Assembly: GCF_963576545.1 (NCBI RefSeq)
Contig: NC_083647.1
Location: 3,949,507 to 4,013,506 of the forward strand
Origin: Limanda limanda
Taxonomy: Eukaryota; Chordata; Actinopteri; Pleuronectiformes; Pleuronectidae
Length of the DNA stretch: 64,000 nt
Reading direction: 5' to 3'
How positions within the stretch are numbered: position 1 is the first letter of the stretch; each line of letters opens with the position of its first letter. Of this stretch, positions 3,282 to 55,782 are shown piece after piece. The notes under the pieces are model-generated. The model made no database searches and had not been told where the DNA came from. It was given only the letters and a program-made list of their open reading frames with translations. The position numbers and the translations under genes are program-made.

Positions 3282-52090
<48,809 letters not shown>

Positions 52091-54489: not shown

Positions 54490-54553
<64 letters not shown>
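54490..54553. repeat. (TA)n microsatellite, left flank of a transposon
   Basis: Pure TA run directly abutting the left end of the DNA element at 54554. Confidence 0.95.
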
Positions 54554-54556
<3 letters not shown>

Positions 54557-55708
54557 TGTTGGGAAGGATACTTTCAAAACGTATTCCGTTACAGAATACA
54601 GAATACATGCACAAAAATGTAATCTGTAACGTATTCCATTACATTAACTAATCTGAGTAACGTATTCTGAATACTTGGAATACTTCCGGTTTGTATTGCA
54701 TTTTTTAAGTGTATGATTGCGGCGTTGTTATAGTCAGTGGAGCAGCAGCAGTTTAAACTCTCTCTCCACCGATGCTGCGGGCCCGCTGGATGTCCGGCTC
54801 CCATCCACTCCCACCTCTGTGCGGGTCTCACCGGAGGCTGAACCCCCCCCTGCGCCAAGGCTGCCTCGCGCCGTGCAGCGATCGTTTCGGCGTCGGGTCT
54901 ATTTTTTGCGCTTGACGCGAGCATATCGCTCCAGGAAACACACTGAAAAAGGATTTTAAACGATATTGATGACATATTTTATATGATATAAATGATAAAG
55001 CATGCATCCCATAGTTTGTATTCCCCTTCTGTTGTCCTGGAGTTTTAAATAAAGAGAGGGGCGGAGAATACGTAATTTACCCTCGACACCCGACATTGAA
55101 CGGAGCAAACAGCGGAGAAGTTCTTGAAGATGGATGACATTAAATTGGGACGCTGTTGCAGTTAATGTTGGAGCAACAAGTGACCATATGCTTTTATACT
55201 ACTGGGTCAACGGGTGATATTATTTTAGCGTCGCTTCAGCGTCCGGTGTGAACCCTGCATGCCTCGCTGGTCTCCTGCAGAGCCATGACAGCGGAGCTCT
55301 GGGAGCGCAGGTCGGTCTTCTCTCACCAGGCGCTGGAAGGGCAGCTTGCGGATCAGCAGCTCCGTAGATTTCTGGTAGCGACGGAACTCTCTCAGAGCCA
55401 AGGTCCCGGGGCCTGTAACGGTCCCGAGCGGGTAGCGGTGAGGCTTCTTCACGCCGCCGGGGTCCGGGCGCTCTTACGGCAGCCCTGGTCTCCAGCTGCT
55501 TCCTGGGGGCTTTGCCTCCGGTGGATTTACGAGACAGTGATTAAACTCGTGAAACAGAGAAGTACCGTCATGTAATCCACTGATTTCAACAATGTAACTG
55601 TATTCTGAATACCATCTATTTAATTTGTAACTGTAACGGAATACAGTTACTCATAATTTGTATTCTAAATACGTAACGCCGTTACATGTATTCCGTTACT
55701 CCCCAACA

Positions 55709-55711
<3 letters not shown>
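54554..55711. mobile_element. Non-autonomous DNA transposon in a (TA)n tract, 1158 bp, with histone H3 fragment
   Basis: The ends are inverted: CAGTGTTGGG on the left and CCCAACACTG on the right, followed inside by repeated GTATTCCGTTAC/GTAACGGAATAC motifs. It lies between two long TA runs, so it inserted into a TA repeat. The subterminal motifs are those of a very common fish repeat; the superfamily is not assigned. The centre (about 54720-55570) is GC-richer than the surroundings and has no transposase, but it contains a histone H3 pseudogene on the minus strand. Confidence 0.8.
55255..55535 (-). pseudogene. Histone H3 coding fragment (pseudogene) inside the transposon
   Basis: Read on the minus strand, 55531 downward gives RKSTGGKAPRKQLETRAA (H3 residues 8-25), then a frameshift. 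After it come VKKPHRY and [20 protein letters not shown] plus FQRLVRE (H3 about 35-72), then a small deletion with another frame change. Last is [19 protein letters not shown] (H3 about 80-98). Compared with normal H3 the first seven residues are unreadable, an extra few codons sit before ALRE, and the C-terminal third is missing. It is therefore a broken copy of a histone gene, not functional. Confidence 0.85.

Positions 55712-55782
<71 letters not shown>
55712..55782. repeat. (TA)n microsatellite, right flank of a transposon
   Basis: Pure TA run directly abutting the right end of the DNA element. Confidence 0.95.

What the first reader, a model, noticed from the sequence alone, without database searches (positions are those of the whole stretch)
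54554..55711. Histone H3 gene fragment captured inside a DNA transposon
A terminal-inverted-repeat element inserted in a TA repeat carries, on its minus strand, a clear but broken histone H3 coding sequence (RKSTGGKAPRKQL ... [17 protein letters not shown] ... SSAVMALQE). The element ends are those of a widespread fish repeat, so the capture may be spread over many loci. Such a family could seed H3 pseudogenes or antisense H3 RNA.
Basis: partly seen in the sequence, partly recalled or inferred. Interest (0 to 1): 0.75.

Follow-up and report, generated by a model that had tools for sequence, protein, structure and literature searches.

The report
Histone-carrying jumping gene, hundreds of copies
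A small jumping-gene family in what looks like a fish genome swallowed most of a histone H3 gene, broke it, and then copied itself to hundreds of places, so broken pieces of one of life's most conserved genes are now scattered over the chromosomes.

Summary
Window 54554-55711 is a complete non-autonomous hAT-type DNA transposon: short inverted ends, and identical 8-bp target duplications in 42 of 42 two-ended copies read. Its own genome (717 Mb) holds 554 right ends and 437 copies of the H3/insert junction. All 40 exact right ends on contig C1 carry H3-derived sequence.

H3 is present in two blocks. Gene nt 23-296 lie at 55261-55533; nt 369-441 (last 13 codons, stop, 30 nt of 3'UTR, to the base of the histone stem-loop) lie at 54723-54795. 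A 462-bp insertion separates them. Relatives L053 and L054 lack the insertion and carry a near full-length H3 inside the same ends. So: capture, small indels and an insertion with 72-bp loss, then amplification. The donor was a replication-dependent H3, somewhat closer to the C23 array than to C12.

Five indels break the consensus frame, and its substitutions look neutral: a pseudogene fragment, not a gene. Amplification is recent. hAT capture of H3 is known in fungi (PMC6710886); my searches listed no vertebrate report. The transposase source and any antisense RNA remain untested.

The parts
54554..55711 (.). Complete non-autonomous hAT-type element (1158 bp), identical to the majority consensus of the 28 closest copies apart from a poly-G tract 6 bases shorter near 55057
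54546..54553 (.). Left target-site duplication, compatible with TATATATA (within (TA)n, so not unique here)
   Evidence: 8-bp TSDs identical in 42 of 42 two-ended copies
55712..55719 (.). Right target-site duplication, compatible with TATATATA
54554..54566 (+). Left terminal inverted repeat CAGTGTTGGGAAG
55699..55711 (-). Right terminal inverted repeat (reads CAGTGTTGGGGAG on the minus strand)
54723..54795 (-). Captured H3, 3' block: gene nt 369-441 (last 13 codons, stop, 30 nt of 3'UTR ending at the base of the histone stem-loop); 68 of 73 identical to the C23 gene
54796..55257 (.). Later insertion that splits the captured H3 and replaces 72 bp of it; its right edge ends CCGGTGTGAACCCTG, like a terminal repeat of another element
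   Evidence: its identity as an independent element was not tested
55261..55533 (-). Captured H3, 5' block: gene nt 23-296 (codons 8-99, counting Met as 1); 244 matches, 11 mismatches, five indels -1, -1, +17, +1, -17; start codon and first 7 codons absent
55404..55439 (-). 17-bp tandem duplication in the H3 part (limits read by eye), shared with relatives L055 and L058, absent from L053 and L054, and also absent from L066, which has the insertion

Best explanation
A non-autonomous hAT element acquired, by transduplication, most of a replication-dependent histone H3 gene (codon 8 to 30 nt past the stop). That H3-hAT element then picked up small indels, a 17-bp tandem duplication, and an insertion that removed 72 bp of H3. 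Broken masters of this kind were then spread by cut-and-paste hAT transposition to roughly 440-550 sites at least, the window's subfamily very recently. The H3 part is a decaying passenger that makes no histone. SHOWN: ends, TSDs, copy counts, two H3 blocks, relatives with uninterrupted H3, frame breaks shared by the closest copies, 0-6 substitutions per copy in the closest 28. INFERRED: that the mover is a hAT transposase supplied in trans, and the route of capture (H3 is intronless, so genomic DNA and transcript cannot be told apart here).
For: 40 of 40 scored matches (of 1710 first-look candidates) span the whole 1158 bp at 98-100%. Of 54 element-bearing loci fetched (L001-L028, L053-L078), 41 have both ends by pattern and 41 of 41 have identical 8-bp TSDs, 39 independent insertions; L072, left out there by a length floor, has one too. 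Consensus of 28 equals the window copy except one poly-G tract. Genome-wide counts, control 0 each: 382 exact H3 40-mers, 437 H3/insert junctions, 554 right ends. True H3 genes match the element in two blocks. L053 and L054 carry near full-length H3 without the insertion, same ends, 8-bp TSDs. Uninterrupted H3 at codons 95-105: 29 sites, 24 in H3 arrays and genes, 5 elsewhere. Family consensus N:S 8:3 in codons 8-98 (p=1.0) and 3:1 in the 3' block. L075 and L077 are identical with different TSDs.
Against: No transposase with these ends was identified: the hAT-domain search of the genome did not complete. No H3-free relative was found, so the pre-capture element is unknown. 13 of 54 loci lack both-end evidence by pattern (truncated, nested, cut by the fetched stretch, or L072). 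TSD centres prefer RY (28 of 35 informative), with the recalled Ac-type nTnnnnAn in 1 of 35 and Buster-type nnnTAnnn in 0 of 35, so the hAT branch is unclear. L066 has the insertion but not the 17-bp duplication: it lost it again, or the order of those two steps is not settled. L053 has 11 nonsynonymous to 11 synonymous changes over codons 8-136 (p=0.03, uncorrected); on codons 8-98 none of 17 sequences reaches 0.05 (lowest 0.061, L053 and L063). Donor: consensus C23-like at 4 of 8 diagnostic sites, C12-like at 1, missing at 3; L058 leans to C12 (3 against 2).
Confidence: 0.92

Rival explanations
1. Chance pseudogene: an H3 retrocopy inserted into one old element at this locus only.
For: The H3 fragment lacks its start and is frame-broken.
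Against: The same H3 part with the same breaks is in the consensus of the 28 closest copies; 437 junction copies genome-wide.
Confidence: 0.01
2. The H3 part is kept because it does something: e.g. it yields antisense RNA or piRNA-like small RNA that touches H3 mRNA, or the element benefits from H3-derived sequence.
For: 68-bp exact identity and 80 shared 25-mers with the live C23 gene, 50 with C12, 21 with each C1 gene; H3-derived sequence is in all 40 exact right ends on C1; hAT capture of H3 has happened independently in fungi (PMC6710886).
Against: Substitutions in the family consensus fit neutrality; the internally deleted copy L072 still has both ends and a TSD, so most of the H3 part is perhaps not needed for movement; universality is equally explained by recent masters that all carried it. 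No RNA data available.
Confidence: 0.05
3. Uninterrupted copies (L054, 169-aa open frame) encode a working H3-like protein.
For: L054 has no stop or frameshift over codons 8-136; L053 shows a mild excess of synonymous changes (11:11, p=0.03 uncorrected), though it has a stop codon, and silent changes in the live gene would give the same excess.
Against: No ATG upstream of the H3 part in L054's frame (its first Met lies inside H3), first 7 codons absent; 17 nonsynonymous to 10 synonymous changes, not different from neutral (p=0.29); histone stem-loop not included; few such copies.
Confidence: 0.02

Closest known systems
hAT-borne histone H3 in Pseudocercospora fijiensis and relatives, and in Pyrenophora tritici-repentis (fungi; PMC6710886: outline, abstract and 12 passages seen)
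   Same: hAT element, 8-bp TSD, histone H3 coding sequence captured and amplified (784 H3-like copies in P. fijiensis, where the copies are dead)
   Different: The full-length P. fijiensis elements are ~9.5 kb with a hAT DUF659 domain and were inactivated by RIP mutation; in P. tritici-repentis many copies are potentially active. This one is ~1.2 kb, no transposase was found in it, and it was broken by indels and a nested insertion before amplification
Pack-TYPE / transduplicating non-autonomous DNA transposons (PMC8903248: listing with start of abstract only; PMC8616336: 11 passages)
   Same: Non-autonomous DNA transposon with a host gene fragment and its own TSDs
   Different: Described there as plant elements, usually not highly repeated; here one capture became a high-copy family
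Helitron that captured an SGNH hydrolase gene in platyfish (seen only as a reference title in PMC7599744)
   Same: Host gene captured by a DNA transposon in a fish
   Different: Helitron, different gene, gene expressed according to the title
Short hAT MITE families (e.g. Mar, PMC3517528, search listing only)
   Same: Short non-autonomous hAT family
   Different: No captured gene named in the listing

Membership tests
hAT superfamily (non-autonomous) | 8-bp target-site duplication | tested here: met
   42 of 42 two-ended copies (41, 39 independent insertions; L072)
hAT superfamily (non-autonomous) | Short terminal inverted repeats of the CAGNG...CNCTG type (recalled) | tested here: met
   CAGTGTTGGG...CCCAACACTG in 28 of 28 copies
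hAT superfamily (non-autonomous) | Moved by a hAT transposase with matching ends | tested here: inconclusive
   PF05699 search of the genome sent 11 times, never answered; the hAT-like element at 43674-46214 has different ends
Transduplicated (Pack-type) gene fragment | Fragment of an identifiable host gene inside the TIRs, multiplied with the element | tested here: met
Transduplicated (Pack-type) gene fragment | Donor gene still in the genome | tested here: inconclusive
   H3 arrays on C23 and C12 and two genes on C1 are present; C1 type disfavoured by lower identity; C23 favoured over C12 by a few diagnostic sites only
Functional H3 gene | Open frame from ATG, stem-loop, purifying selection | tested here: not met
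   Five indels; no RF00032 match in L001, L053-L056, L058 while genes L029 and L039 match (true gene L032 also fell below the cut-off); family N:S neutral
Fungal H3-hAT lineage | Common descent of the capture | not tested
   Fungal sequences were not compared; the element carries the 3'UTR of this genome's own H3 genes, which makes a local capture the natural reading (inference)

The most novel reading that the evidence does not exclude
Histone H3 is captured by hAT elements again and again (two fungal events in print, now one in what looks like a vertebrate) because the association pays: H3-matching small RNA or antisense RNA from hundreds of copies acts on H3 supply or on the silencing of the element, so this family would be a natural, transposon-borne regulator of a core histone.
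Probability: 0.05. Interest if true: 0.88.

Novelty: new member of a known kind. Interest (0 to 1): 0.55.

Why it matters
It shows, with intermediates still in one genome, how a cut-and-paste element acquires a core housekeeping gene, wrecks it and then spreads it. It adds an independent, apparently vertebrate case to the fungal hAT-H3 captures, which makes 'why H3, why hAT' a testable question. It also warns that H3 probes (FISH, PCR markers) and H3 gene counts in this lineage may pick up hundreds of dispersed pseudogene fragments, and it offers a clean system (80 shared 25-mers with a live H3 gene) for asking whether a host tolerates small RNA against its own histone.

Tried and rejected
Chance pseudogene in one element: rejected. 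Selection for an H3 protein: rejected for the family; L054 considered and judged dead for want of an upstream start codon and a neutral N:S. My first N:S count (family 23:7) and first donor-site count (family 6 of 8 C23-like) aligned H3 across the insertion and were wrong for copies that have it; I recounted on the true H3 blocks and use those. The odds did not need changing. The other hAT-like element in the window (43674-46214) as partner: its 16-bp ends CAGTGGTTCCCAAACT differ, so not supported; Pfam gave no family for its ORF. Pfam on four reading frames of the element found only a histone match in one. Spread to other organisms: end patterns found nothing in viral contigs or genome contigs, collections of viral and of bacterial/archaeal contigs; a protein search with the element's 106-aa frame gave 12 hits, of which I read 4 of 12 (P0033, P0034, P0036, P0041): all four keep the normal H3 N-terminus and look like frame-shifted ordinary H3, not this element. 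A search with the left frame gave none. A protein search with another window ORF gave 32 unnamed hits and did not name the species. Phage collection: no match. L059-L065 (7 loci) are older H3-hAT relatives with parts of the insertion; six of the seven (all but L060) share flanks, so they are not counted as independent insertions. Literature for a vertebrate case: (titles and abstract starts of capped lists, 1 to 20 papers shown per search of up to 3,542 found; one search covered the end sequence, 20 of 54 shown) and passages of PMC6211105, PMC5599702, PMC7599744, PMC8616336 named none; subscription papers and repeat databases were not searchable.

Full report
What is there. The window lies at C12:3949507-4013506 of a 717-Mb genome in 336 contigs. 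Window 54554-55711 runs from CAGTGTTGGGAAG to CTCCCCAACACTG inside a (TA)n tract. The whole 1158 bp matched 40 of 40 scored places (of 1710 first-look candidates) at 98-100% identity and full length, on many contigs. I read 28 of these 40 with flanks: 28 of 28 have the same ends and an identical 8-bp repeat on both sides (in L001 and L015 it lies in a simple repeat). I fetched 54 element-bearing loci in all (L001-L028, L053-L078). By pattern 41 have both ends, and 41 of 41 have identical 8-bp TSDs, 39 independent insertions (L004-L006 are one insertion in a tandem segmental duplication). L072, dropped there by a 600-bp length floor, also has one. The other 12 loci are truncated, nested, or cut by the stretch fetched. 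This is the signature of a hAT element; Pfam found no transposase in four frames of it.

How many. Whole-genome pattern counts, each with zero hits for the reversed control: 382 for an exact 40-mer of the H3 part, 437 for the junction between the insertion and H3 with up to 3 mismatches, 554 for the right 33 bp with up to 2 mismatches. On contig C1, 37 of 40 exact right ends have an H3 hit within 700 bp in the lists; the other three were read (L071-L073) and also hold H3-derived sequence. Eight right ends (L071-L078), chosen because they lacked the exact H3 40-mer in the listing, hold H3 sequence in 8 of 8 cases: six composites, one with an extra ~1.4-kb insertion (L073), one internally deleted (L072). 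So, where sampled, H3 is a constant part of the family.

The H3 part. Against a live H3 gene (L039) the element holds gene nt 23-296 at 55261-55533 (244 matches, 11 mismatches, indels -1, -1, +17, +1, -17) and gene nt 369-441 at 54723-54795 (68 of 73). Homology ends at the base of the histone stem-loop. Rfam finds the stem-loop in genes L029 and L039 and in none of the six element loci tested (L001, L053-L056, L058); it also missed true gene L032, so that test is weak on its own. Gene nt 297-368 are missing; in their place is a 462-bp insertion.

The history is preserved. L053 and L054 have the same hAT ends and 8-bp TSDs but no insertion: their H3 runs from codon 8 to the 3'UTR without indels (one stop in L053, none in L054). 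L055 and L058 also lack the insertion, and share a 17-bp tandem duplication with the big family that L053 and L054 lack. Of five other composites with the insertion (L066-L070) four carry the duplication or a changed form of it, but L066 does not; it either lost it or the order of duplication and insertion is not settled. A search for uninterrupted H3 at codons 95-105 (up to 3 mismatches) gave 29 sites: 24 in the H3 arrays and genes and 5 elsewhere: L054, L055, L057, L058 and C12:24898927, which I did not fetch; L053 and L056 are too diverged to be counted there. Order of events: capture, indels and insertion with 72-bp loss, amplification. The insertion looks like another terminal-repeat element (its H3-side edge reads CAGGGTTCACACCGGACGC, and L060 has a matching inverted end), but an independent count of it did not complete.

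Donor and age. Eight sites separate the C23 gene (L039) from the C12 gene (L032). Aligned block by block, the family consensus is C23-like at 4, C12-like at 1 and lacks 3; L053 and L054 are 5 to 2 with one other base; L055 is 6 to 1 with one other base; L058 leans the other way, 2 to 3. The stop context and 3'UTR of the consensus match C23. So the donor was of the C23/C12 type, more probably C23; the C1 genes are clearly further (about 82-87% in L053, L054, L055 and the consensus, whose figure for the consensus is rough because it aligned across the insertion). L053-L055 are 93.3-94.7% identical to the C23 gene. In the window's subfamily the 28 closest copies carry 0-6 substitutions each from consensus, mean pairwise difference 0.447%; these 28 were chosen by similarity, so the figure understates the spread. 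L075 and L077 are identical with different TSDs. Eleven other composites differ by 2-4% from the window copy, and L053 and L054 by 12.6-13.6%.

Function. On codons 8-98 the consensus has 8 nonsynonymous and 3 synonymous differences, as expected without selection (p=1.0), and 3 to 1 in the 3' block. Of 17 sequences tested on codons 8-98 none falls below 0.05; the lowest, 0.061, are L053 and L063 (9:9 each), both with more silent changes than expected. Over codons 8-136 L053 has 11:11 (p=0.03, uncorrected) and L054 17:10 (p=0.29). Silent changes in the live gene since the capture would push in this direction too. No copy that I read encodes a complete H3. A 68-bp stretch is identical to the live C23 gene and 80 25-mers are shared with it, so small RNA from the element could touch H3 mRNA. 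That is possible, not shown.

What it is like. PMC6710886 (outline, abstract and 12 passages) reports the same pairing, hAT plus histone H3, in fungi: 784 H3-like copies in Pseudocercospora fijiensis, and an independent event in Pyrenophora tritici-repentis. The present case is the same kind of event, by inference independent (its 3'UTR is that of the local H3 genes), in a short element without transposase. Nine paper searches listed no vertebrate H3 capture; I saw titles and abstract starts of capped lists from open-licence papers only.

Verdict. Ordinary mechanism, striking cargo, an unusually complete record of the steps, and an independent repeat of a pairing known from fungi. New member of a known kind.

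Noticed in passing
window 43674-46214: A second, complete hAT-like element: perfect 16-bp inverted ends CAGTGGTTCCCAAACT, 8-bp TSD GATTAGAT, and an open 616-aa transposase-like frame (43959-45806; 'transposase-like' is my reading) without Pfam match. It looks intact.
   Followed up: partly
L059, L061-L065: Older H3-hAT copies that share flanking sequence at six loci, so the host sequence around one insertion was itself multiplied. By eye, the flank seems to encode a RecQ-like helicase; no tool tested this.
   Followed up: partly
L004, L005, L006 (C1:29.96-29.98 Mb): Three copies with identical flanks 6.8 kb apart: a tandem segmental duplication that includes the element.
   Followed up: no
L050, L051, L052 (C12:3.18-3.46 Mb): H3 genes in the C12 array whose first codons are replaced by a common sequence ending TATACGATATAGAACC; apparently start-less H3 genes.
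   Followed up: no
insertion sites of L001-L028, L053, L054, L066-L071, L074-L078: Target duplications prefer a nnYRYRnn centre (central RY in 28 of 35; 4 of 39 independent sites with only one or two kinds of base left out), unlike the Ac and Buster patterns I recall. This may mark the hAT branch of the missing transposase.
   Followed up: partly
window (C12:3.95-4.01 Mb): The window lies about 0.4 Mb from one of the two large H3 gene arrays (C12:3.18-3.56 Mb); probably coincidence, since copies lie on many contigs.
   Followed up: no
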